A stretch of DNA of 64,000 nucleotides from Butyrivibrio fibrisolvens 16/4 (GTDB taxonomy: Bacteria > Bacillota > Clostridia > Lachnospirales > Lachnospiraceae): assembly GCA_000209815.1 (NCBI GenBank), contig FP929036.1, positions 415,340 to 479,339 of the forward strand. Direction: 5' to 3'. The notes under the pieces were generated by a model, which saw only the letters and a program-made list of their open reading frames with translations, was not told the DNA's origin and did not search any database. Shown here piece after piece: positions 29,028 to 38,495 of the stretch (the stretch's first letter is position 1; every line of letters starts with the position of its first letter). The position numbers and the translations under genes are program-made.

Positions 29028-29088
29028 AAAAAAACCCTCCGAGGAAATCCTCGAAGGGCATAATTTTATAATTTGGGTTGGGCTGTTC
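29028..29088 (-). repeat. left copy of the tuf terminator region (direct repeat)
   Basis: Positions 29035-29088 are identical over 54 bases to 38442-38495, the terminator just downstream of tuf, and in the same orientation. The hairpin is followed on the minus strand by seven T, so it is still a functional-looking terminator. It marks the left border of the island. Confidence 0.85.
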
Positions 29089-29350: not shown

Positions 29351-29480
29351 ATTCACTCCATAGTTTATCGTGATTATGAATGGCGTATTTTCGGTGTTTC
29401 TTTTAATGTGATTATTCATATTCGCATTATTTTTTATAGTTTTTAGAATTTTTGGTACCAAAACAGTACCAAAGTTAATC

Positions 29481-30464
29481 CTAGTTAAGTAAATTTTGAT
29501 TAGGTTTGCTCTCGTGCCATTCCTTCACCATTTTTCGATATTCCTCTTGTTTTTCATAATGCTTCTTTAAATCCGCTTTCCTTTTTGCAGCCTTCTGAGC
29601 TCTTGCTTTTGCCTCTCTTTGAGCATTATTATTATTTCTCCTGCTTCGGCTCTGATTAGATTTTATGTTATCCAAGACCTGTTCCATTTGTTCTTCTACT
29701 GTCAACAATTCATTTTCTCTGCCTTTTATAGCTAAATCGACATGCTGGATGGTACCTGCCTCACCATTTTCTTTCAGGAAAAACCCTGTTCTTCTTAATT
29801 TACCATCTAATGCCTCATCGTTTCCTTCCATTGTGAATTCAGTAGATTCAGAACATAAATAAATTGCTCCAACGCCAGCTTCTTTCAGATCTATTAAACG
29901 GTCAATCCCATTTTCATCTCGATACCATACCTTTAAATCATTAAAAATCTCATCATCTTCATCAATCCAGCCATTATTATCCTTATCATACTCGGCCAGA
30001 TCTTTAAAACCATCTCCGCTCTTCACACCAAATAACTCAGTGCCATCATTTATATGTCCATCACCATTTTTATCTAATGCCAGAAATCCGCTCCCTTTGC
30101 CTAGACAAGAAATCTCATCATCCTTTCCATCTGCGTCTAAGTCAAATTTAAACTTTGAATCACTTAGGCTTGCAGATTTTGCATCTATATTGATAATTAA
30201 TGGATCACACAATGCATCCAACGGAGAACTCATCTGAATAAAAGTATCATGCTTTTTGGTTCTTGCCATTTCCATCTTTAAGTCAACATCTATTTCTCTC
30301 CCATCCTGAGTTTTAACTTTTCCCTCTGCTCCATAATTAGTTTGCTCCTTTTCAACTCTACTTTCAACAAAGCCTCCAAAGGAAGCGCCTTGTGCCACTC
30401 CTCCACCATATGTCTTTGAATATTGTCTGCTTGAATAGCTATTTACATTACTTTCGCCAATTCT
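29481..30464 (-). CDS. calcium-binding-type (EF-hand/VCBS-like) protein without signal peptide
   Basis: ~327 residues. The start at 30464 (MRIGESNVNSYSSRQ) is chosen because GAGGTG lies 6 bases upstream. The centre holds three acidic loops like those of large calcium-binding adhesins: FDLDADGKDDE, LDKNGDGHINDGTELFG and YDKDNNGWIDEDDE, then LKVWYRDENG. The C-terminal ~70 residues are a basic, Lys/Arg/Ala-rich helix (QREAKARAQKAAKRKADLKK). The N-terminus is Ser/Asn-rich with no signal peptide. It follows the FliD-like gene, with a strong hairpin between them. Inference: an exported or surface protein secreted by a non-Sec route. Function unknown. Confidence 0.72.
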   Translation of the reverse strand, partial: RIGESNVNSYSSRQYSKTYGGGVAQGASFGGFVESRVEKEQTNYGAEGKVKTQDGREIDVDLKMEMARTKKHDTFIQMSSPLDALCDPLIINIDAKSASLSDSKFKFDLDADGKDDEISCLGKGSGFLALDKNGDGHINDGTELFGVKSGDGFKDLAEYDKDNNGWIDEDDEIFNDLKVWYRDENGIDRLIDLKEAGVGAIYLCSESTEFTMEGNDEALDGKLRRTGFFLKENGEAGTIQHVDLAIKGRENELLTVEEQMEQVLDNIKSNQSRSRRNNNNAQREAKARAQKAAKRKADLKKHYEKQEEYRKMVKEWHESKPNQNLLN

Positions 30465-30486
30465 CATATGTAACACCTCACAAAAC

Positions 30487-30530
30487 AAAAGCATCTGCAC
30501 TCTATCCATCCATAGAATGCAGATGCTTTC
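30487..30530 (-). terminator. strong hairpin between the FliD-like and calcium-binding genes
   Basis: AAAGCATCTGCA (30488-30499) pairs perfectly with TGCAGATGCTTT (30518-30529). The loop sequence can extend the stem. On the minus strand TTTTGTTTT follows, then the ribosome binding site of the 29481 gene. It acts as a terminator or partial attenuator, since no separate promoter was found for that gene. Confidence 0.85.
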
Positions 30531-30563
30531 CTTAACACCTATTGCTTTTAAATTTCTAATCTG

Positions 30564-31274
30564 TTAAATAAACCAGCTTCCAAAGAACGAAGATAGTCCG
30601 TAATTATTCAACGCACTATACTTTCCGTTCATTCCGTAACTGTTATATAATCCTGCCAATCCGTTTTGCTGATACATTGATGACGCCGCTGTGTTTTGAG
30701 TCACTACAGCACTAGCTCTTACGTTTTGTCCAAATGAACCATTGGTACCGAACACTCTCTGTAGATCACCTGCATCAGCACTCTTTAGTTTTTCTTCATC
30801 CATTGACAACGCACCTGTTTTAAAGTCATAACTAATACCAACTTTTTCGAGATCTGCCTTGTTTGTTAATGCAATTCTCTTCATCACAGATGCCCTGTTA
30901 CTTATTTGTACTGATGAACTATTTGATGTCCCCTCAACTATCTCATTGTATCCATCAATCAAGTTCTTGGCATTTGAATATAATGAATCTCGGTTTCCAT
31001 CTTGATAAATTGATTTGTTACTTAGCTGCCGTCCTGCGGTATCTGCTTTACTTGCGCCATTTAGAATTTTATCATTGGTTTTCGATGCCATCTTATAAAG
31101 CGAGCCAAACACCTTACTATTATCGATAGTACTAAAGGCTCCATAAGATTTTTGGATTCCGTTCCCCTTTGAATTCTTTCCTACTTTTTGCTTGCCATAC
31201 TGATTTAAAATAGAGTTTGTACTACTATTAATACCTCCAGTTAACAAGCTGAAATAATCCATTCCAAAATTCAT
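30564..31274 (-). CDS. FliD-like/flagellar-hook-associated-like protein of unknown function
   Basis: 236 residues, Ser/Asn/Gly-rich, no signal peptide. The region LSMDEEKLKSADAGDLQRVFGTNGSFGQNVRASA resembles the pattern near the end of FliD caps ('gtlsld..kl..al..dp..v..lF'). The preceding LIDGYNEIV also occurs in such proteins. It is much shorter than FliD (>400), so it may be a minor cap-like or secreted protein rather than FliD itself. AGGAGG lies 6 bases before the ATG. A weaker copy of the composite 21-bp-repeat/sigma-D promoter lies 46-109 bases upstream. That promoter link supports a flagellum-related role. Confidence 0.6.
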   Translation of the reverse strand: MNFGMDYFSLLTGGINSSTNSILNQYGKQKVGKNSKGNGIQKSYGAFSTIDNSKVFGSLYKMASKTNDKILNGASKADTAGRQLSNKSIYQDGNRDSLYSNAKNLIDGYNEIVEGTSNSSSVQISNRASVMKRIALTNKADLEKVGISYDFKTGALSMDEEKLKSADAGDLQRVFGTNGSFGQNVRASAVVTQNTAASSMYQQNGLAGLYNSYGMNGKYSALNNYGLSSFFGSWFI

Positions 31275-31319
31275 AAGTGCCTCCTTATCTGCTTGGATGA
31301 TTAACTACTGTTAAATCTA

Positions 31320-31383
31320 GTATCGTCCATCAAAACATGATAAAGAATAGCTTTGTAACAACTGGGCACCGGGGTGTCATAAC
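31320..31383 (-). promoter_or_regulatory. composite LytTR-repeat/sigma-D-like promoter C (weak copy)
   Basis: On the minus strand: GTTATGACA (31375-31383), 12 bases, GTTGTTACA (31354-31362), 6 bases, TTCT as a poor -35 (31344-31347), 16 bases, GACGATAC (31320-31327; six of eight match GCCGATAA). Period and order match sites A and B, but the -35 and spacer deviate. It overlaps the last codons of the agrC-like gene and precedes the FliD-like gene. Confidence 0.4.
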
Positions 31384-32057
31384 TGGTCTAAATTCTGCAA
31401 CATCACCATTGCGCTATACCATCCGTCCTTATTCTCTATAGTAATACCACCAAGATATTTCTCCGCTATCTGTTTAACACTTTTTAACCCCAATCCATGT
31501 TCTCCAGATTTTGTTGTCACAGGGAGCCCATCATCAAATTTAGTTATCGTCCCTGTAAAGGTATTCTTAACTTCCACTATAAAGAAACTATCTTTTTTGA
31601 TGCCCCTTAATATTATCCTTCTTTCATGATTATATTCCATGCACTCGGTAATCGCATTGTCCAACAAGTTTGTCATAATAACCCCTATGTCATATGGAAG
31701 AATACTAATTGCATTAGACCATAAAAAATCACTTTCAAATAATATCCCTTTTTCTTCTGCCAATGCACTCTTTTCGTTAACAATTACATCTATCAACGCA
31801 TTTCCAGTATTAAACCTATGCATAGTACTATTAAGTTCTATTCCCATTTGAGATAAATATTCTATTACCTCTTCATTACTATGAGACTCTATCAATCCGC
31901 GTAATGTCGTAAGTTTGCCAGCCATATCATGTCTAAGTATACGGATTTTAGTATGATAAGAATCTAAATCTTCTATATACTTTTTTGCATAATTTGTACT
32001 TGCTATAATTTTCTGATTTTCAAGTTCTTGTTCTTTAACTTTTGGAACTCCTGCCAT
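31377..32057 (-). CDS. AgrC-like histidine kinase, catalytic C-terminal part (frameshifted)
   Basis: A 226-residue ORF that is the cytoplasmic half of a GHKL/HATPase_c_5 sensor kinase. The phospho-acceptor His is in ILRHDMAGKLTTL (~res 42), the N-box is IMTNLLDNAITEC, and the G-box is GEHGLGLKSVKQIA. The nominal start (MAGVPKVK) is an out-of-frame artefact. Adding one A in the run at 32034-32036 joins it to the middle fragment as ...WQEFQKLKEQELENQKI. It belongs to one ~450-residue gene spanning 31377-32763. Partner: the LytTR response regulator immediately upstream. Confidence 0.8.
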   Translation of the reverse strand: MAGVPKVKEQELENQKIIASTNYAKKYIEDLDSYHTKIRILRHDMAGKLTTLRGLIESHSNEEVIEYLSQMGIELNSTMHRFNTGNALIDVIVNEKSALAEEKGILFESDFLWSNAISILPYDIGVIMTNLLDNAITECMEYNHERRIILRGIKKDSFFIVEVKNTFTGTITKFDDGLPVTTKSGEHGLGLKSVKQIAEKYLGGITIENKDGWYSAMVMLQNLDQL

Positions 32058-32506
32058 AACACTACTCCAGAAAGTTGGCCTAAAAAGAGTAATACACCCA
32101 TCACTGGCAATTTAATTCTTATACTTATGTCCTGCTCACTAAAGATAAAGACTTCTTTATCCAACGGAATAATAGATATTTCACTTAGCATATACATCAT
32201 CAATAATGCAACTACTGAATATACCGACAACAAGCATGCCTGCTTAACCGTCATAAGGTATTTCTTTCTAACTATTCTTTTCACTATCACCAGCTCGAAG
32301 GTCACACAAACCACATAGATAAATGCCATTATTACTATCCAGATTGTAAGCTGATTATACACGCTTTCCATAGCATTGCCTGAGGCATAATCTATGTGCT
32401 CTAAAAGAAAATCAGAAATACTATCAGATAAAAACCCTGTAAAAATAAAGCAAATACTAAAAATACTATTCCATAAGAAATAAAGAAATACCAACAATGG
32501 CAACAT
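32003..32506 (-). CDS. AgrC-like histidine kinase, middle membrane part (frameshifted)
   Basis: 167 residues with about four hydrophobic helices, ending in the signalling helix before the catalytic domain. Its ATG (32506) is not a real start: one extra base at 32506-32508 joins it to the N-terminal fragment as ...FFIREIGKMLPLLVFLYF. Its own tail (NKNLKIRKL) is out of frame. Taken together, the three fragments give the six-to-seven-helix sensor of AgrC/ComD-type kinases, which usually bind peptide pheromones. Confidence 0.72.
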   Translation of the reverse strand: MLPLLVFLYFLWNSIFSICFIFTGFLSDSISDFLLEHIDYASGNAMESVYNQLTIWIVIMAFIYVVCVTFELVIVKRIVRKKYLMTVKQACLLSVYSVVALLMMYMLSEISIIPLDKEVFIFSEQDISIRIKLPVMGVLLFLGQLSGVVLWQEFQKLKNKNLKIRKL

Positions 32507-32763
32507 TTCCCTATCTCTCTTATAAAAAACAATAATACTGTCACGGCAGAAATAACCAAAAACACCCCTTTTGTTTCAGCTGTAACAAAACAAATCAGCA
32601 AACGCTCTACTGATATAGTTGCTATAAAAAGATTCCTCTTACGTATTGTAATTCCTTCGTTCGGAACAAAAATGAAAAATAAGCTCACAATAATCCCTAA
32701 TTGAATAAGAATTAATGTAAGCTCATATATCTTCTGTATAATTTGAAATGTTGCCTCTGTCAT
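32401..32763 (-). CDS. AgrC-like histidine kinase, N-terminal membrane part
   Basis: About 120 residues, three to four helices. The start is ATG 32763 (MTEATFQIIQ), which follows the regulator's stop codon by one base and has GGGAG seven bases upstream. The longer TTG frame to 32784 lies inside the regulator gene. The true coding part ends near 32508, where the frame changes. No agrB or agrD homologue is visible nearby, so the signal is unknown. Confidence 0.7.
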   Translation of the reverse strand: MTEATFQIIQKIYELTLILIQLGIIVSLFFIFVPNEGITIRKRNLFIATISVERLLICFVTAETKGVFLVISAVTVLLFFIREIGKCCHCWYFFISYGIVFLVFALFLQGFYLIVFLIFF

Positions 32764-32764
32764 A

Positions 32765-33118
32765 TCAACTCTCCCTATCTGCAATATAATTCATATAACT
32801 TTGGACAAAATCATTATACCTATACTTTGACAGTAATGCCTGTTGACCGCTAGCCATTGTGATGTCTCCTCTGGTAAAATTTTTCACATGCTTCATGTTT
32901 ACGAGATAGCTTTTATGCACTCTGAAAAATGTATCACCCAAGTTCTGTTCCCATTCGCCAATTTTTCCATAAATTTCAATTTTCCGTCCAAGTGCATGAA
33001 TAACAACTTTTCTTCCCACACTTTCAATGCAAACTATATTTTCCTCATTCAATGAAAAAGTAGTTCCACCATTTTTTATTGTTATATGGTTTTCTTCTCT
33101 GCAAGAATTAGGCAGCAA
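32765..33118 (-). CDS. AgrA-like response regulator, LytTR DNA-binding part (frameshifted)
   Basis: 117 residues carrying a complete LytTR domain (HITIKNGGTTFSLNEENIVCIESVGRKVVIHALGRKIEIYG...FFRVHKSYLVNMKHVKNF). LytTR domains bind paired 9-bp sites ~21 bp apart, the pattern found three times in this island. The upstream receiver ORF and this one are a single ~240-residue regulator: removing one A/T from the run at 33158-33161 joins them as ...NKDKFKYSIECCRGNKRIDLLPNS. The stop overlaps the ribosome binding site of the kinase gene. Confidence 0.8.
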   Translation of the reverse strand: MLPNSCREENHITIKNGGTTFSLNEENIVCIESVGRKVVIHALGRKIEIYGKIGEWEQNLGDTFFRVHKSYLVNMKHVKNFTRGDITMASGQQALLSKYRYNDFVQSYMNYIADRES

Positions 33119-33146
33119 ATCAATTCTTTTATTTCCTCTGCAGCAC

Positions 33147-33521
33147 TCAATACTGTATTTTAAATTTATCTTTGTTTATAGGCTTAACTATGTAATCGAA
33201 GGCATTAACATTAAATGCTTCAGCCATTCTATCCTGTATCCCAGTCACAAAAATAATTAAAGGTTTTGTAATTCTCACACTTTGCTCTTTTTCCTTTATT
33301 TTAGCCTGAATGGTTTCTGCAACAACCATACCATCCATTTCAGCCATAGCTAAATCTAGAAGCAGAATATCTATTTCAGGTTTATCTGGGCATAAATAAT
33401 AGTGTAAAATTTCATCTCCAGAGGAAAATTGAACACATTTGGCAGTACCAAGTAATTCAGATACATACTTTTCTAAAGATTCTCTAACTATTATTTCATC
33501 ATCACATATACCTACAACCAT
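33147..33521 (-). CDS. AgrA-like response regulator, receiver part
   Basis: 124 residues forming a CheY-like receiver. The acidic pair is in GICDDE (~7-8), the phospho-acceptor Asp is in LLLDLAM (~56), and the conserved Thr and Lys are in IIFVTGI and DYIVKPINK. It ends prematurely in IQY where the frame changes to the LytTR part. A GAAAAAGGGG site lies a few bases before the ATG. It is part of the transcript starting at the 281-residue gene or its own promoter; no convincing -35/-10 was found in the 111-base gap. Confidence 0.82.
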   Translation of the reverse strand: MVVGICDDEIIVRESLEKYVSELLGTAKCVQFSSGDEILHYYLCPDKPEIDILLLDLAMAEMDGMVVAETIQAKIKEKEQSVRITKPLIIFVTGIQDRMAEAFNVNAFDYIVKPINKDKFKIQY

Positions 33522-33632
33522 TTTTTCCCCTTTTTCATCTTATTAAAAAGTATACCTTAAATATATCTCAACTAGAATTTATTGTCACAAATGGACTGAT
33601 AAATGTCATAAATAGAATAAACGCACTACGTT

Positions 33633-34478
33633 CTACTGTGCTGCTCCATTTCCTGTTCCTGTGAACATCATCATAAAAAATTCAGCTGCTGCACTAATCT
33701 CTCCACCCAAATAACTAGTTTCAGAAAAAACATTATCGACCCCCTTAGCTCCGAATAAACTAAAAGTATCCGAAGCAATCATTCTTTCTGCATTTTTCTT
33801 CGTAGCTGCTTCTCTTTCCATATGACGTTTTTCATAATATTTTTCCATAAGCTCCATTAACATATCATGACGTTTCTGTCTCTTTTCCCACCAGCTTTCA
33901 TCATCTTTAGAATCAGCAAACTCTAAAGGATAGCCTTCCCCATGATGTTCTTCTATTGAAGCTCCAAAGTGTTCAGCATGGTAGTGTCCCTGAGCTCCAA
34001 TAGGAAAATGCACAGCCCTGTCAATTTTAAAATATCCAAGTACCCATGCCTCATATTTAGGATCTGATTTCATCTGTTTATAGCCATATTCCGTAATATT
34101 TATATATTCAACATCATTAAGTTGACTGGAATCATAAGGAATCTTAGAAATCACATCATTAATGAGACTCTTATATTCTTCTAATGTCAAATCATCAGGA
34201 TTGTAATTTTCACCAAGATACTGCTTTATAACATTTTCACCAGCACTAACCATCTTATCAACATCAGCTTTTCTATCCTTATGTTTTGATATGTATTTAT
34301 CTACTGTACTTTCTTCTGGCTGGATTCTTTTCCTTCCGGAGCTCTTTGCAGAGTCAATCTTTGAAAGTGTTTCTGAGAAACTACTGTTTGAGCTATTAAT
34401 TTTAGTATATTTCTGCATTCCTTGTATTACAGAACTGGAATAGTTAAATATTGCCTGTTGCACTGACATACCATACAT
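33633..34478 (-). CDS. hypothetical protein without signal peptide, downstream of promoter B (281 aa)
   Basis: No family recognised. The N-terminus (MYGMSVQQAIFNYSSSVIQGMQKY, then Ser/Asn-rich residues 27-50) has no signal peptide. The middle is helical and acidic. There is a His-rich segment (GAQGHYHAEHFGASIEEHHGEGYP, ~res 160-185), a charged coiled-coil-like helix (EKRQKRHDMLMELMEKYYEKRHMEREAA) and a hydrophobic Gly/Ala C-terminus. The start has GGAGG ten bases upstream. The composite sigma-D/LytTR promoter B and a leader hairpin lie directly upstream. Probably co-regulated with, or co-transcribed with, the two-component genes. Possible metal binding at the His cluster is speculative. Confidence 0.62.
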   Translation of the reverse strand: MYGMSVQQAIFNYSSSVIQGMQKYTKINSSNSSFSETLSKIDSAKSSGRKRIQPEESTVDKYISKHKDRKADVDKMVSAGENVIKQYLGENYNPDDLTLEEYKSLINDVISKIPYDSSQLNDVEYINITEYGYKQMKSDPKYEAWVLGYFKIDRAVHFPIGAQGHYHAEHFGASIEEHHGEGYPLEFADSKDDESWWEKRQKRHDMLMELMEKYYEKRHMEREAATKKNAERMIASDTFSLFGAKGVDNVFSETSYLGGEISAAAEFFMMMFTGTGNGAAQ

Positions 34479-34494
34479 AGTTCTTACACCTCCA

Positions 34495-34566
34495 TTAAAA
34501 ATGGCATTGCTTCAAATTAGATTTCCTCCTTGAAACAATGCCACCAAAAGCACTCATAACTTCCAT
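34495..34566 (-). other. possible 23-codon leader ORF spanning the promoter-B hairpin
   Basis: An ATG at 34566, about five bases after the expected transcription start of promoter B, opens a 23-codon frame (begins MEVMSAFGGI). It runs through both arms of the leader hairpin and stops just after it. No ribosome binding site is seen. Translation here would open the hairpin. Low confidence as a gene. Confidence 0.25.
34496..34542 (-). terminator. terminator/attenuator in the leader of the 281-residue gene
   Basis: GGCATTGCTTCAA (34503-34515) pairs with TTGAAACAATGCC (34530-34542), 13 positions with one wobble. Five T follow on the minus strand. It lies between promoter B and the coding start, so it attenuates that transcript as well as ending the upstream 466-residue gene's message. 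Confidence 0.75.
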
Positions 34567-34576
34567 GATGTAATAT

Positions 34577-34639
34577 CTATCGACCATTACATCTGCTCAT
34601 TTATAGAGATGTAATCAATAGCAGTAATAATGTATTGAA
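34577..34639 (-). promoter_or_regulatory. composite LytTR-repeat/sigma-D promoter B
   Basis: On the minus strand: TTCAATACA (34631-34639), 12 bases, TTGATTACA (34610-34618), 6 bases, TAAA (34600-34603), 15 bases, GTCGATAG (34577-34584). The last two match the sigma-D/sigma-28 consensus TAAA-N15-GCCGATAA at ten of twelve positions with exact spacing. The two 9-mers repeat with a 21-bp period, as LytTR dimers require. Confidence 0.6.
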
Positions 34640-34646
34640 TAGATAT

Positions 34647-36047
34647 CTATATTTCTTCTGCGACCTGTTCGTCTAATTCATCTTCTTTCTGATGAGTCTC
34701 TTTTGCTTTTTCGGCTTCTTCTCTAATAAGCTCAATCATAGCATTAATATCATTATCAACTCGATCAAGAAGCTTTTCCCATTCCTCACCAGACATGCCT
34801 CGCCAATCATCCTCTTCATTCTTTGATTCTAGCTTACTGTATGTCTCAATGAGCATCTTTAATACATCCTGTACATCCATAACTTCACCAGTTGATTCTC
34901 TTTTAAATGATACGTCAGCCTCAGAAATAGCTTGCACCCAGTTTAATTTCTTAGTTGCTGCTTCTTCAACAGATGAAAATTCTAGTCCACCTAATGGGTC
35001 CATAAAACTCTTGAGGGCACTCCAACTACCAAAATGATTTCCAGCTATTCCCGTACCATTTTCATCAGCATACTGACAATAAGCAAACATTTCTATAGCT
35101 GTAGCATTTCTTGGATCTACCTCAGAAAGATTTACATCATAAGATGAGCCATTAGAAATATTTACTCTAACAATGACATCATCATTATCTTCATTGATTA
35201 GCTGTGTAGCCGTCATTCCATGTCCCATACCAGGCGTAAGAACAAATCCCATGCCTAAATCTTTTTCCTGAACCTTATTATCTTTCGGCTCTGACTCACT
35301 TAAATCAACATCATATTCAAGGTTTAGTGAGGAAATAATTCCTGTACTAGATATAATACTTCCTGTTGGTACCACATTAATCCTTGCACCTTCAATATTC
35401 CCTATACCTGAATTAATCAAAACTTCCATTAGCCTATTGATATGCGGCATTAATTTTTCAGCAGCTAAATTACTAAGTCCAGCAAATTCAAATTTTCCTA
35501 CCTCAGCAGAAAATGCTGAAAGATAATTCATTCGCTCAAAAATATCATCAGCTGCTACATTATCCACAAATTTCATAGTTTCATCAGCCAAGTTTTCTGT
35601 ATCTCGAATATAGGAGCATAATGCTACAAATTCAGTAAAATCGGCATCTGTAGGATCAACATTATAAGGATCAATTTCTTTAGAAAATTCCTTTCCATCC
35701 TTATCTGTTCCAGTAGCTGTATACTTTCGCTCGTCACCATTAACATCAATTCTAATTTCAAATTTTTGCATAACTCCCTGATATGAATACGCTGTTCCCC
35801 CATCAGAACTGGCTATGGCACTCATCTGACTAGTCATTACACTTACGGAAACTATACGAGTGTAACTTGTCTTCCCCTTTGAATCATCTTCAAAAGATGC
35901 ATCTACATCATTTAATGTTTCATTTGTTGACGTTTCAATAGCATTTTTGAAATCGTAATTTTTATAATTTTGATTTGTAAAGAAGTAGCTACTACTAAAA
36001 CTGCTACTCTGATAATACAAACTATTTTCTGTTAAAAAATCTGTCAT
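34647..36047 (-). CDS. hypothetical acidic protein without signal peptide, downstream of promoter A (466 aa)
   Basis: No family recognised. The N-terminus (MTDFLTENSLYYQSSSFSSSYFFTN) is Ser/Tyr/Asn-rich and not a signal peptide. Residues ~60-130 are beta-rich and include FEIRIDVNGDERKYTATGTDKDGKEF. The middle is largely helical (LNYLSAFSAEVGKFEFAGLSNLAAEKLMPHINRLMEVL). The last ~60 residues are a Glu/Lys-rich coiled-coil-like tail. The composition suggests an extracellular or filament-associated protein. GAAAGGG lies six bases before the ATG. The composite promoter A and a hairpin lie 160-330 bases upstream. It belongs to the same putative regulon as the 281- and 236-residue proteins. Confidence 0.62.
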   Translation of the reverse strand: MTDFLTENSLYYQSSSFSSSYFFTNQNYKNYDFKNAIETSTNETLNDVDASFEDDSKGKTSYTRIVSVSVMTSQMSAIASSDGGTAYSYQGVMQKFEIRIDVNGDERKYTATGTDKDGKEFSKEIDPYNVDPTDADFTEFVALCSYIRDTENLADETMKFVDNVAADDIFERMNYLSAFSAEVGKFEFAGLSNLAAEKLMPHINRLMEVLINSGIGNIEGARINVVPTGSIISSTGIISSLNLEYDVDLSESEPKDNKVQEKDLGMGFVLTPGMGHGMTATQLINEDNDDVIVRVNISNGSSYDVNLSEVDPRNATAIEMFAYCQYADENGTGIAGNHFGSWSALKSFMDPLGGLEFSSVEEAATKKLNWVQAISEADVSFKRESTGEVMDVQDVLKMLIETYSKLESKNEEDDWRGMSGEEWEKLLDRVDNDINAMIELIREEAEKAKETHQKEDELDEQVAEEI

Positions 36048-36210
36048 ATAAACCCTTTCTTCAGCCTATCTGTCATTCAAAGCTGATCCACTTTCCCTTG
36101 TCAAAAGCTTTTGCTTTCTTTGGGTCCAAGTGGTAAAAAAACATTACTCATAACTACTCATACACAATCAATAAAACCACCCCATTCATCAACCTTTGAA
36201 ATAATTTGTT

Positions 36211-36304
36211 TTAATCAAAAAAGGACATCAAAAGATTTTTCAATCCATTGATATCCTTTAAATCCATTTCTTATCATTACTTCCAAAGACTATTTATATT
36301 TTCT
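36211..36304 (-). ncRNA. candidate small RNA or attenuated leader from promoter A
   Basis: Expected transcript from promoter A: it starts near 36304 and ends in a 12-bp stem (AAAGGATATCAA with TTGATGTCCTTT, one G-U pair; ~36220-36258) followed by a T-run, giving ~90 bases. An 18-codon frame at 36211-36267 (MDLKDINGLKNLLMSFFD) overlaps the hairpin but has a poorly spaced ribosome binding site. Could be a regulatory RNA, a leader peptide or a pheromone precursor. Not related to a known RNA family by eye. Confidence 0.4.
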
Positions 36305-36310
36305 ATATTT

Positions 36311-36373
36311 ATATCGGCACATCATATTACATCGTTAACCATATGTAATGAAAAGCACTTTTATTGTAATGAA
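36311..36373 (-). promoter_or_regulatory. composite LytTR-repeat/sigma-D promoter A
   Basis: On the minus strand: TTCATTACA (36365-36373), 12 bases, an identical TTCATTACA (36344-36352), 6 bases, TAAC (36334-36337), 15 bases, GCCGATAT (36311-36318). This matches TAAA-N15-GCCGATAA at ten of twelve positions. The perfect direct repeat has a 21-bp period and ends 6 bp before the -35, the position of an activator such as AgrA or ComE. Confidence 0.62.
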
Positions 36374-36422
36374 ACACAAAAAGGATTATGTCACCAACCA
36401 CAATTTCTCTATTAATAAAATT

Positions 36423-36452
36423 AAGGAGCCCCATTAGATGGCGACTCCCTAT
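36423..36452 (-). terminator. terminator of the Abi_2 gene
   Basis: On the minus strand GGAGTCGCCAT pairs with ATGGGGCTCC around CTA, with small internal mismatches. TTAATTTTATT follows. It lies 33 bases past the abi stop codon. Confidence 0.7.
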
Positions 36453-36484
36453 AAAAGCTCATGCTTTTCAATTGTGTAATTAGT

Positions 36485-37402
36485 CTAGCCTACTTTATTC
36501 AAACTGTCAATAATTTTCGTTAAAAATTCATACTGCGACTTAATTAAGTTATTCTTGCTGAAATAATCCTTATTTCTAGTAAAACGATTATCAAACATCT
36601 CTTTTATGTCTTCAAATCTGCGCTGCTTCATCACATCATTTTTCACTATATTATTATAAACATATAAAAGGACAACAAAATTATACACAAAACTATGCTT
36701 TAAATTATTGCTAATAGACGACTTACCTACCGCATTAAGACTTTTAACAAAATCAATAATTCTTTTATCTGGAGCCCCCTTTATTTCGTCCGATAAACGA
36801 TTAATCAAACAATTACTATGTGCTGATGCATTTCTTAAATCACGAACTATATTCAGGAACTTTCTATCTTCAATTTCCTCACCATATGTTTTGAAATAGA
36901 AATCACAAAGGTAAGTTAAATCACCAAAAGAAATCAATTCTACAAACACCCAAATAGGAAATTTAGGATAATATTTTTCAATTAACCCTCTACAGTACTC
37001 ACTAGCCCTATGCCCATGAATAACTTTTAAAACCTTATCATTTTGAGCAATAAAATCAGCAACCAGCTTATATCCATCATCTCCCGCATTCTCAACTCCA
37101 TTCAATAATGCAAGTTTCATATTATGTTCTATATCTAAACACATTTCTATAATTTTATATCTAAGATGCATATCTATTGTCGATAATTCTTTTAAATACG
37201 CAAACTCTAAATTAATATATTGTCCCTTAGTATCACAATCTGCTTTTTGCTTCTCATAATTAGTTCTATAGGCCGCGAGCTTCATATAATAATTGTTATT
37301 TACTAAAAATATCTTTGCATCAGTCTCATCAACTATAGAAAATTTGATTCCCTTTTTCTTCATATGTTCAATGAGCTGGTCTGGTGATAAAAGTTTCTTC
37401 AT
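36485..37402 (-). CDS. Abi_2/AbiD-AbiF-family abortive-infection protein (HEPN)
   Basis: A 305-residue protein of the Abi_2 family. The N-terminus fits (LLSPDQLIEHMKKKGIKFSIVDETDAKIFLVNNNYYMKLAAYR), as does the first helix pair (IDMHLRYKIIEMCLDIEHNMKLALL). The HEPN active-site motif R-x4-H is at residues 190-195 (RNASAH). HEPN Abi proteins are RNases that halt the cell on phage infection, and some AbiF loci carry a structured antitoxin RNA. The gene has its own promoter (TTGAAG-17-TATTAT). It lies between a truncated relaxase and the sigma-D cluster, a typical mobile-element cargo position. Full length, active-site residues present. Confidence 0.82.
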   Translation of the reverse strand: MKKLLSPDQLIEHMKKKGIKFSIVDETDAKIFLVNNNYYMKLAAYRTNYEKQKADCDTKGQYINLEFAYLKELSTIDMHLRYKIIEMCLDIEHNMKLALLNGVENAGDDGYKLVADFIAQNDKVLKVIHGHRASEYCRGLIEKYYPKFPIWVFVELISFGDLTYLCDFYFKTYGEEIEDRKFLNIVRDLRNASAHSNCLINRLSDEIKGAPDKRIIDFVKSLNAVGKSSISNNLKHSFVYNFVVLLYVYNNIVKNDVMKQRRFEDIKEMFDNRFTRNKDYFSKNNLIKSQYEFLTKIIDSLNKVG

Positions 37403-38434: not shown

Positions 38435-38495
38435 AAAAAAGCCCTCCGAGGAAATCCTCGAAGGGCATAATTTTATAATTTGGGTTGGGCTGTTC
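38435..38495 (-). terminator. tuf terminator; right copy of the island-flanking direct repeat
   Basis: The hairpin core at 38442-38465 is followed on the minus strand by a run of six T. Positions 38442-38495 are identical to 29035-29088. It lies 9 bases past the tuf stop codon. Confidence 0.88.

What the first reader, a model, noticed from the sequence alone, without database searches (positions are those of the whole stretch)
34577..36373. Composite promoter: 21-bp direct repeat fixed 6 bp upstream of a sigma-D promoter
Two regions 1.7 kb apart share one layout to the base: 9-mer, N12, 9-mer, N6, TAAA or TAAC, N15, GCCGATAT or GTCGATAG. The four 9-mers are TTCATTACA (twice), TTCAATACA and TTGATTACA. 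The 21-bp period is what LytTR dimers such as AgrA and ComE recognise; the TAAA-N15-GCCGATAA core is the flagellar sigma-D consensus. Each lies before an unknown gene (466 and 281 residues), and a LytTR regulator with an AgrC-like kinase is encoded in the same cluster. Joint control by a peptide-type two-component system and the flagellar sigma factor is, to my knowledge, not a described arrangement.
Basis: partly seen in the sequence, partly recalled or inferred. Interest (0 to 1): 0.82.

Follow-up and report, generated by a model that had tools for sequence, protein, structure and literature searches.

The report
LytTR-gated flagellar sigma-D promoters
In gut and rumen bacteria of the family Lachnospiraceae, some promoters combine a binding site for a signalling regulator with a promoter for the flagellum-building sigma factor, so certain flagellum-related genes are probably switched on only when both a signal and a finished flagellar base are present.

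Summary
The layout recurs in other Lachnospiraceae genera beside LytTR genes. In loci fetched by protein homology, 9-mer pairs occur 16 times at period 21 and at most once at any other period from 10 to 60. The -10 resembles flagellin promoters of the same genomes, which lack the repeat; fliA was found in 10 of 10 genomes tested. Best reading: a LytTR regulator activates sigma-D polymerase, giving AND control of FliD-like, FlxA-like and unknown soluble proteins. Unexpected extra: 8 of 22 leaders hold a terminator-like hairpin, mostly with a CsrA-type ANGGAN hexaloop. Caveats: 13 other 466-family loci lack the repeat; the window's regulator, kinase and fliA read as frameshifted, probably sequencing errors; peptide sensing is unsupported; binding and transcription are untested. 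Activators at sigma-28 promoters are known (CRP, MarA); my searches listed no LytTR one. New variant of a known kind.

The parts
34577..34639 (-). Composite promoter W1: 9-mers 34631-34639 and 34610-34618, TAAA 34600-34603, -10 GTCGATAG 34577-34584
   Evidence: the same 62 bp before the 281-aa gene of G300
36311..36373 (-). Composite promoter W2: 9-mers 36365-36373 and 36344-36352, TAAC 36334-36337, -10 GCCGATAT 36311-36318
33633..34478 (-). 281-aa target protein; no Pfam (E up to 1) or NCBIfam (E up to 0.1) match, no Cys, no strongly hydrophobic segment (hydropathy only)
   Evidence: homologues in 14 of 145 relatives
34647..36047 (-). 466-aa target protein; no match over a curated cut-off
   Evidence: G252 homologue behind a composite site
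32765..33521 (-). LytTR response regulator, in this assembly two ORFs (receiver 33147-33521, LytTR domain 32765-33118); intact in G300 (L024:2198-2956)
31377..32784 (-). GHKL sensor kinase, in this assembly three ORFs; intact in G300 (L024:2937-4346)
34502..34543 (-). W1 leader: terminator-like hairpin followed by a T run, with hexaloop AAGGAG (34526-34531) closable by GTTTC/GAAAT
   Evidence: covariance-model match weak, E 0.079
36223..36256 (-). W2 leader: terminator-like hairpin followed by a T run, with hexaloop ATGGAT (36243-36248) closable by TCA/TGA
   Evidence: not found by the covariance model at E up to 1
30564..31274 (-). 236-aa FliD_C-like protein (weak), same cassette
   Evidence: (E 3.6e-4, below the curated cut-off)
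29481..30509 (-). 342-aa protein with weak Flagellin_C similarity, same cassette
   Evidence: E 0.0019, below the curated cut-off
29035..29088 (.). Left copy of a 54-bp perfect direct repeat bounding the island (region just downstream of tuf)
38442..38495 (.). Right copy of the 54-bp perfect direct repeat

Best explanation
W1 and W2 belong to a LytTR/sigma-D regulon found in motile Lachnospiraceae. A GHKL kinase phosphorylates a LytTR response regulator, which binds as a dimer to two 9-mers one 21-bp period apart. From there it recruits or stabilises RNA polymerase carrying FliA/sigma-D at a promoter with a good -10 and often an imperfect -35. Transcription then needs both the kinase's signal and active sigma-D, which in known systems (recalled) is freed from FlgM when the hook is complete. 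In some genomes the regulator genes lie behind the same kind of composite promoter (positive feedback); in three Pseudobutyrivibrio genomes the regulator operon has the repeat before a sigma-A-like -10. Cluster proteins are soluble and lack obvious signal peptides, several with FliD_C, FlxA or DUF6033 similarity, so late flagellar export substrates or accessories are likely. Some leaders add a terminator-like hairpin that contains a CsrA/RsmE-type ANGGAN hexaloop, suggesting a third layer. Shown: sequence layout, recurrence, gene neighbourhood, fliA in the genomes, csrA and fliW in this genome. Inferred: phosphorylation, binding, activation, AND logic, export, CsrA control.
For: (1) Not chance. 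Family scan: 3 of 299 genomes, 4 places, reversed control 0; relaxed pattern: 8 of 397 genomes, 11 places, reversed control 0. (2) Periodicity in loci fetched by protein homology: 16 pairs at period 21, at most 1 at any other period 10-60, 27 loci, 452,632 bases; with a -10 required, 15 at period 21, at most 2 at any other period 12-31, 26 loci. Orthologous copies in related genomes count separately in both. (3) Pairs found without asking for a -10: 12 of the 16 have CGA[AT] starting 27 or 28 bases after the second 9-mer; without W1, W2 and the near-identical L024 copy, 9 of 13. (4) G252's site, found by promoter pattern only, precedes a homologue (E 2.9e-24, 30% identity) of W2's 466-aa protein. 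(5) LytTR genes lie beside sites in G300, R. faecis, RUI362, L101, G268, G184, G031, G431 and three Pseudobutyrivibrio, all confirmed by Pfam; GHKL kinases confirmed beside those of G300, R. faecis, RUI362, L101, G268 and RGIG9167. (6) 12 flagellin promoters of these genomes read TAAA-like-N15-N[CTA]CGA[TA]A[AT] and score at most 13/18 for the pair. (7) FliA in 10 of 10 composite genomes, one copy split, and in all 14 genomes with a 281-family gene against 102 of 145 overall. (8) At exactly N6 the -35 is TAAA in 4 of 25 composite sites, one base off in 6, worse in 15. (9) Known LytTR operons have 9-mers 11-13 bp apart, mostly 12, within 4-11 bp of the -35 (PMC6193735, passages).
Against: The LytTR site is not tied to the 466 family: 13 other fetched loci (12 in the genus) score 14/18 or less for the pair, five with a plain CTCGATAT box. 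Among 26 DUF6033 loci only two have a composite site nearby, both already counted, while three have a strong plain sigma-D promoter. The weak -35 depends on fixed N6: allowing one base of shift, 16 of 25 reach 3/4 or better. A sigma-A-like hexamer (5/6) overlaps many composite -10s, including W2 (TATAAA). One pair (L027:7318) has no sigma-D -10. W1 fails the stricter scan. Three sites overlap predicted ORFs (L091:6347, L078:1143, L100:9770), where starts are uncertain. G031 and G431 have a LytTR protein without a receiver domain match, and G184's kinase fragment had no Pfam match. The window's RR, HK and fliA read as frameshifted. No binding or transcript data exist.
Confidence: 0.77

Rival explanations
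1. The LytTR repeat serves an overlapping sigma-A promoter, and the CGATA box is a separate, second promoter; the two inputs add rather than combine.
For: Three Pseudobutyrivibrio RR-HK operons have the same repeat before TATACT with no CGATA; 5/6 sigma-A-like hexamers lie 30-31 bases after the repeat in W2, G431, G268b, G268c, G184, R. faecis 2 and RUI362b and d.
Against: Several composite sites have CGAAA-type boxes with sigma-A matches of 4/6 or less (G252, RUI362a, RUI362c, RGIG9167_1, L098, L100a, L100b); such boxes also occur at flagellin promoters of the same kind of genomes (TCCGAAAT, GCCGAAAT); GATATAA contains TATAA by itself.
Confidence: 0.13
2. The repeat binds a LytTR repressor, or tunes sigma-D promoters only slightly, rather than an essential activator.
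For: No functional data; W1 has a full TAAA -35 and 16 of 25 sites reach 3/4 within one base of shift.
Against: The site lies wholly upstream of the -35, the activating position of LytTR regulators in PMC6193735 (passages); at exactly N6, 15 of 25 composite -35s have two or more mismatches.
Confidence: 0.07
3. Chance or low-complexity similarity.
For: AT-rich DNA gives background pairs at 2-3 mismatches (53 against 23 reversed).
Against: 0 of 100 shuffles, period-21 peaks, recurrence beside LytTR genes in other genera.
Confidence: 0.01

Closest known systems
CRP-activated sigma-28 promoters aer and trg of E. coli (PMC2859248, abstract and conclusions section read)
   Same: A DNA-bound activator upstream of a sigma-28 core, giving a subset of late flagellar genes an extra input; site centred at -49.5 there, about -54 here if transcription starts about 7 bp after the -10 (inferred).
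   Different: A CRP site at two chemoreceptor-type genes in E. coli; here a LytTR direct repeat with its regulator encoded beside the targets, at many operons in several genera.
LytTR-controlled promoters (HdrR/BrsR type operons; PMC6193735, passages read; ComE and AgrA recalled)
   Same: Two 9-mers with about 12 bp between, a few bp upstream of the -35; autoregulation of the regulator operon.
   Different: Promoters in the passages read are sigma-A type; here the core is sigma-D.
C. difficile agr effect on flagellar genes (PMC3754575, passages read)
   Same: A LytTR regulator influences flagellar expression.
   Different: There most flagellar genes fall in an agrA mutant and the passages show no direct site; here a site is fused to selected promoters.
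MarA at sigma-28 promoter flgBP2 (PMC12781870, passages read)
   Same: An activator makes a sigma-28 promoter with a poor -35 usable.
   Different: MarA binds between -35 and -10; here the site is upstream.
CsrA-FliW control of flagellin leaders (recalled; listings)
   Same: ANGGAN hexaloops in leaders (RsmE NMR, in PMC7652899, passages read); csrA and fliW in this genome.
   Different: Here the hexaloop is nested in a terminator-like hairpin; no binding data.

Membership tests
LytTR-regulated promoter | Two 9-mer direct repeats with about 12 bp between, close upstream of the -35 | tested here: met
   geometry compared with PMC6193735
LytTR-regulated promoter | LytTR regulator encoded nearby | tested here: met
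   split in this assembly, intact in G300
LytTR-regulated promoter | Binding of the regulator to the repeats | not testable with these tools
   needs EMSA or footprinting
Sigma-D (sigma-28, FliA) promoter | TAAA-N15-GCCGATAA-like core, as in the genome's own flagellin promoters | tested here: met
   -10 matches 6/8 at W1 and 7/8 at W2, -35 4/4 at W1 and 3/4 at W2
Sigma-D (sigma-28, FliA) promoter | FliA encoded in the genome | tested here: met
   9 of 10 genomes over the cut-off, the window genome's copy split and below it
Sigma-D (sigma-28, FliA) promoter | Transcription by FliA holoenzyme | not testable with these tools
   needs 5'-end mapping and a fliA mutant
Agr-type peptide quorum sensing | AgrB-like processing protein in the locus | tested here: not met
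   no AgrB hit among the 16 window ORFs given to Pfam; other genomes' clusters not tested in full
Agr-type peptide quorum sensing | AgrD-like precursor peptide | not tested
   short ORFs were not examined
Agr-type peptide quorum sensing | GHKL kinase paired with LytTR regulator | tested here: met
CsrA target leader | ANGGAN hexaloop hairpins in the leader beyond chance | tested here: met
   11 of 19 leaders, expected 0.83; 18 sites, expected 0.85; motif chosen after seeing these leaders. Flagellin leaders, not used to choose it: 17 of 23
CsrA target leader | CsrA binding or csrA-dependent expression | not testable with these tools
   csrA and fliW are present

The most novel reading that the evidence does not exclude
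Motile Lachnospiraceae share a three-key control for a flagellum-coupled set of proteins: a LytTR two-component system reads an outside signal, sigma-D reports a finished hook, and CsrA (itself set by FliW and flagellin level) decides read-through at an attenuator whose ANGGAN hexaloop excludes the upper terminator stem. The proteins leave through the flagellar exporter, and the whole regulator-plus-target cassette moves between species.
Probability: 0.27. Interest if true: 0.82.

Novelty: new variant of a known kind. Interest (0 to 1): 0.64.

Why it matters
Late flagellar promoters are usually thought to be governed mainly by sigma-28 itself (so stated in the conclusions of PMC2859248). A dedicated two-component system wired base-exactly into a chosen subset of sigma-D promoters, in gut and rumen commensals, would mean that these bacteria make certain flagellum-linked proteins only on an external signal. 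It gives a testable role to several protein families of unknown function and offers a natural series of activator-dependent sigma-28 promoters with matched plain sigma-D controls.

Tried and rejected
Chance: rejected. A first loose scan for sigma-D cores was too noisy and was dropped. The triple repeat at G000:C1:503378-503428 lies inside a long ORF (L046, L047; I take it for uvrA by eye) and was set aside. Of the 11 places, G243 and G038 lie inside long ORFs and are treated as chance. Scan of the class: 5 of 391 genomes matched, one being the window's own; the other 4 are 2-mismatch hits, against 2 reversed-control hits. Rfam: no match up to E 1 in window 33500-36600; at gathering scores only a T-box and a tRNA in 16 other loci. 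A profile of the 281 family found no convincing relative among solved structures (best E 0.87). No paper in the library names DUF6033. Literature searches for LytTR with sigma-28 or flagella (capped lists, 458 papers of which 20 were listed) showed no title or abstract start describing such a promoter; the library holds open-licence papers only and I did not open every hit. PMC12323615 was fetched but the searched words were not in it. Structure prediction could not be done.

Full report
THE OBSERVATION. The two sites are in the sequence exactly as written. The full pattern with up to 3 mismatches occurs twice in the window and in none of 100 shuffles, twice in the 3,164,379-bp genome and never when read backwards. 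The pair of 9-mers alone is near background genome-wide once 2-3 mismatches are allowed (53 against 23 for the reversed control), so only W1 and W2 stand out.

WHERE THE WINDOW COMES FROM. The genomes of the genome search are unnamed; matching contig lengths with the titles shows G300, G304, G305, G319, G322 and G325 to be Pseudobutyrivibrio genomes or MAGs (SIG315, RGIG9167, RUI423, xylanivorans DSM 14809, SIG311, ACV-2), and these are 'same genus' as the window. The family is Lachnospiraceae.

RECURRENCE. The full pattern (3 mismatches) was found in 3 of 299 family genomes: the window's genome, G031 (0 mismatches, before a LytTR gene and a FliD_C-like gene) and G268 (before a 297-aa gene followed by LytTR RR and GHKL kinase). 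A relaxed pattern (2 mismatches) hit 8 of 397 family genomes at 11 places, reversed control 0: the window's two, G031, G431, three in G268, G184 (before a LytTR RR), G252, and two (G243, G038) inside long ORFs that I treat as chance. The G252 site was found by promoter pattern alone and lies before a 433-aa protein that is 30% identical to the window's 466-aa protein (E 2.9e-24). In the genus, 5 of 29 genomes match with 3 mismatches, three of them with CGAAA instead of CGATA. In the class (391 genomes) the hits besides the window's own are 4 two-mismatch ones against 2 control hits; two of these (G524, G551) have a LytTR-like pair before TGCTATA. Within these samples the arrangement is a Lachnospiraceae one.

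LESS BIASED TEST. Loci fetched because they encode a 281-family protein were scanned for pairs of 9-mers (at most 1 mismatch in all) at every period from 10 to 60: 16 pairs at period 21, single pairs at periods 10, 24, 30, 41 and 45 (27 loci including the window and its near-identical G300 copy, 452,632 bases; orthologous copies counted separately). Of the 16, 12 have CGA[AT] starting 27 or 28 bases after the second 9-mer; leaving out W1, W2 and the G300 copy, 9 of 13. The other four are three RR-kinase operons of Pseudobutyrivibrio with TATACT 29 bases after the repeat, and one pair with neither. Requiring a -10 and allowing looser 8-mers gives 15 hits at period 21 and at most 2 at any other period from 12 to 31 (26 loci); W1 itself misses that filter. 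R. faecis M72 (L091) has two sites, one overlapping the predicted start of a 168-aa ORF that precedes RR and kinase, one before its 281-family gene; RUI362 (L088) has three clear and one weak; L098, L100, L101 and L095 have variant words, found with the -10 in the search. Pfam confirms LytTR domains in the regulators beside the sites of G268, G184, G031, G431, RUI362, R. faecis, L101 and three Pseudobutyrivibrio; the G031 and G431 proteins show no receiver match.

SIGMA-D. FliA was found in 10 of 10 genomes with composite sites (9 over the curated cut-off; the window genome's copy is split). Of 30 flagellin loci fetched, 12 gave a recognisable promoter, TAAA-like-N15-N[CTA]CGA[TA]A[AT], in line with the Butyrivibrio sigma-28 motif TAAA-N16/17-MCGATAa quoted in PMC3720852 (passages). 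In these 12 (13 rows, one promoter printed twice) the repeat position scores at most 13/18, against 18/18 at W1 and W2. At the composite sites the -10 is kept while the -35 at exactly N6 is TAAA in 4 of 25, one base off in 6 and worse in 15; allowing one base of shift, 16 of 25 reach 3/4 or better. The flagellin set had been selected for a good -35, so I do not compare the two formally.

TARGETS. The 281-aa family is found in 14 of 145 relatives, all 14 of which have FliA, against 102 of 145 overall (cross-tabulated by hand; seven of the 14 are one genus). Cluster proteins hit FliD_C (E 1e-8 to 4e-4, the window's own below the cut-off), FlxA (2e-17) and DUF6033 (down to 6e-11); none of 26 cluster proteins has a membrane-like segment by hydropathy (best 19-residue mean 1.23, kinase 2.81). 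Export by the flagellar apparatus is an inference.

AGAINST. The 466 family has matches in 22 of 145 relatives; of the loci fetched, 13 others with a readable leader (12 in the genus) have no repeat (best 14/18) and five have a plain CTCGATAT box. Among 26 DUF6033 loci, only two, which belong to clusters already counted, show a composite site within the fetched flanks, while three have a strong plain sigma-D promoter. So the LytTR site is added to some sigma-D genes, not a property of a gene family.

LEADERS. Of 22 leaders between promoter and gene, 8 carry a long hairpin with a T run: W1, W2, G031, G431, G252, RUI362b and the 304-aa gene leaders of two Pseudobutyrivibrio; the short leaders have none. 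Leaders of seven other 466-family genes, with or without a recognised sigma-D box and without the LytTR repeat, have one with loop CAACGGAATG. A covariance model from these seven gave 32 matches (E up to 1) in 95 held loci: the seven themselves, seven antisense copies of palindromic hits, and new ones, of which L024:11193 (E 9e-13), L033:8362 (7e-5) and L089:9764 (1.6e-4) lie 24-26 bp before a FliD_C-like or 281-family gene, L027:11420 and L028:4432 (0.005) and the weak L026, window W1 (0.079) and L079 (0.64) before composite-promoter genes; L176:52 is 606 bp from the next ORF; W2 is not found. ANGGAN hexaloops closed by 3 or more pairs occur 18 times in 19 of these leaders (expected 0.85 from shuffles), in 11 of 19 (expected 0.83); the motif was chosen after seeing them, so these odds flatter it. 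Flagellin leaders, not used to choose it, have one in 17 of 23 (background 0.37 per kb). RsmE contacts this hexaloop (PMC7652899, passages). csrA and fliW are in the window genome's flagellar region. In five leaders folded, the hexaloop hairpin and the upper terminator stem exclude each other, the terminator being about 10-14 kcal/mol more stable. I read this as a CsrA-sensitive attenuator, unproven.

THE CASSETTE. Window 29378-30620 and 31235-35643 are 98.2% identical to G300, while three neighbouring shared segments are 79-83% and the fliA region 78% identical: the regulator and its targets were probably exchanged recently as a unit. It lies between 54-bp perfect direct repeats just downstream of tuf, with an N-terminally short Mob_Pre protein and an Abi_2 gene inside. 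The four frameshifting differences in RR and HK from G300 are single-base deletions in A/T runs, and the split fliA also has a one-base gap in an A run, most simply sequencing errors.

VERDICT. Observation confirmed; the joint LytTR/sigma-D reading is well supported by comparative evidence; peptide sensing is not. New variant of a known kind.

Noticed in passing
29035-29088 and 38442-38495: 54-bp perfect direct repeats bound a 9.4-kb island holding the cassette, an Abi_2 gene and an N-terminally short Mob_Pre relaxase; the cassette is 98.2% identical to another species while neighbouring shared segments are 79-83% identical.
   Followed up: partly
36047-36200 and leaders in L164-L176, L079: 466-family leaders share a second conserved element near the start codon (CCGCTCGGACCTTTCTGGAGAGCGG, then GCAGCTTTGACTGACAGATGAGCTGC before AAAGGAG), apparently two hairpins; no Rfam match in the loci scanned.
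   Followed up: no
flagellin leaders, L102-L131: 17 of 23 flagellin leaders examined carry one or more ANGGAN hexaloop hairpins, several over the AAGGAG just before the start codon, suggesting CsrA control of flagellin in Lachnospiraceae.
   Followed up: no
G000:C1:1912963-1913624 (L177): The window genome's fliA is split, with a one-base gap in an A run against G300, like its RR and HK genes.
   Followed up: partly
L026:15261-17377 and L027 from 18171: A second LytTR RR / GHKL kinase pair flanks the FliD-like/FlxA-like gene cluster (Pfam on L026 only; L027 kinase by phmmer).
   Followed up: partly
L082: A 4-kb contig binned as Cellulosilyticum sp. SIG270 carries the cassette at 98-99% identity; mis-binning or transfer.
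   Followed up: no
L132, L133 (G524, G551): A LytTR-like repeat pair shared by two genomes outside the family lies before a TGCTATA box.
   Followed up: no
L038:7609-8157 and L077:1732-2280: The LytTR proteins beside the G031 and G431 composite sites show no receiver match and have no kinase listed next to them, so their input differs from the two-component type.
   Followed up: partly
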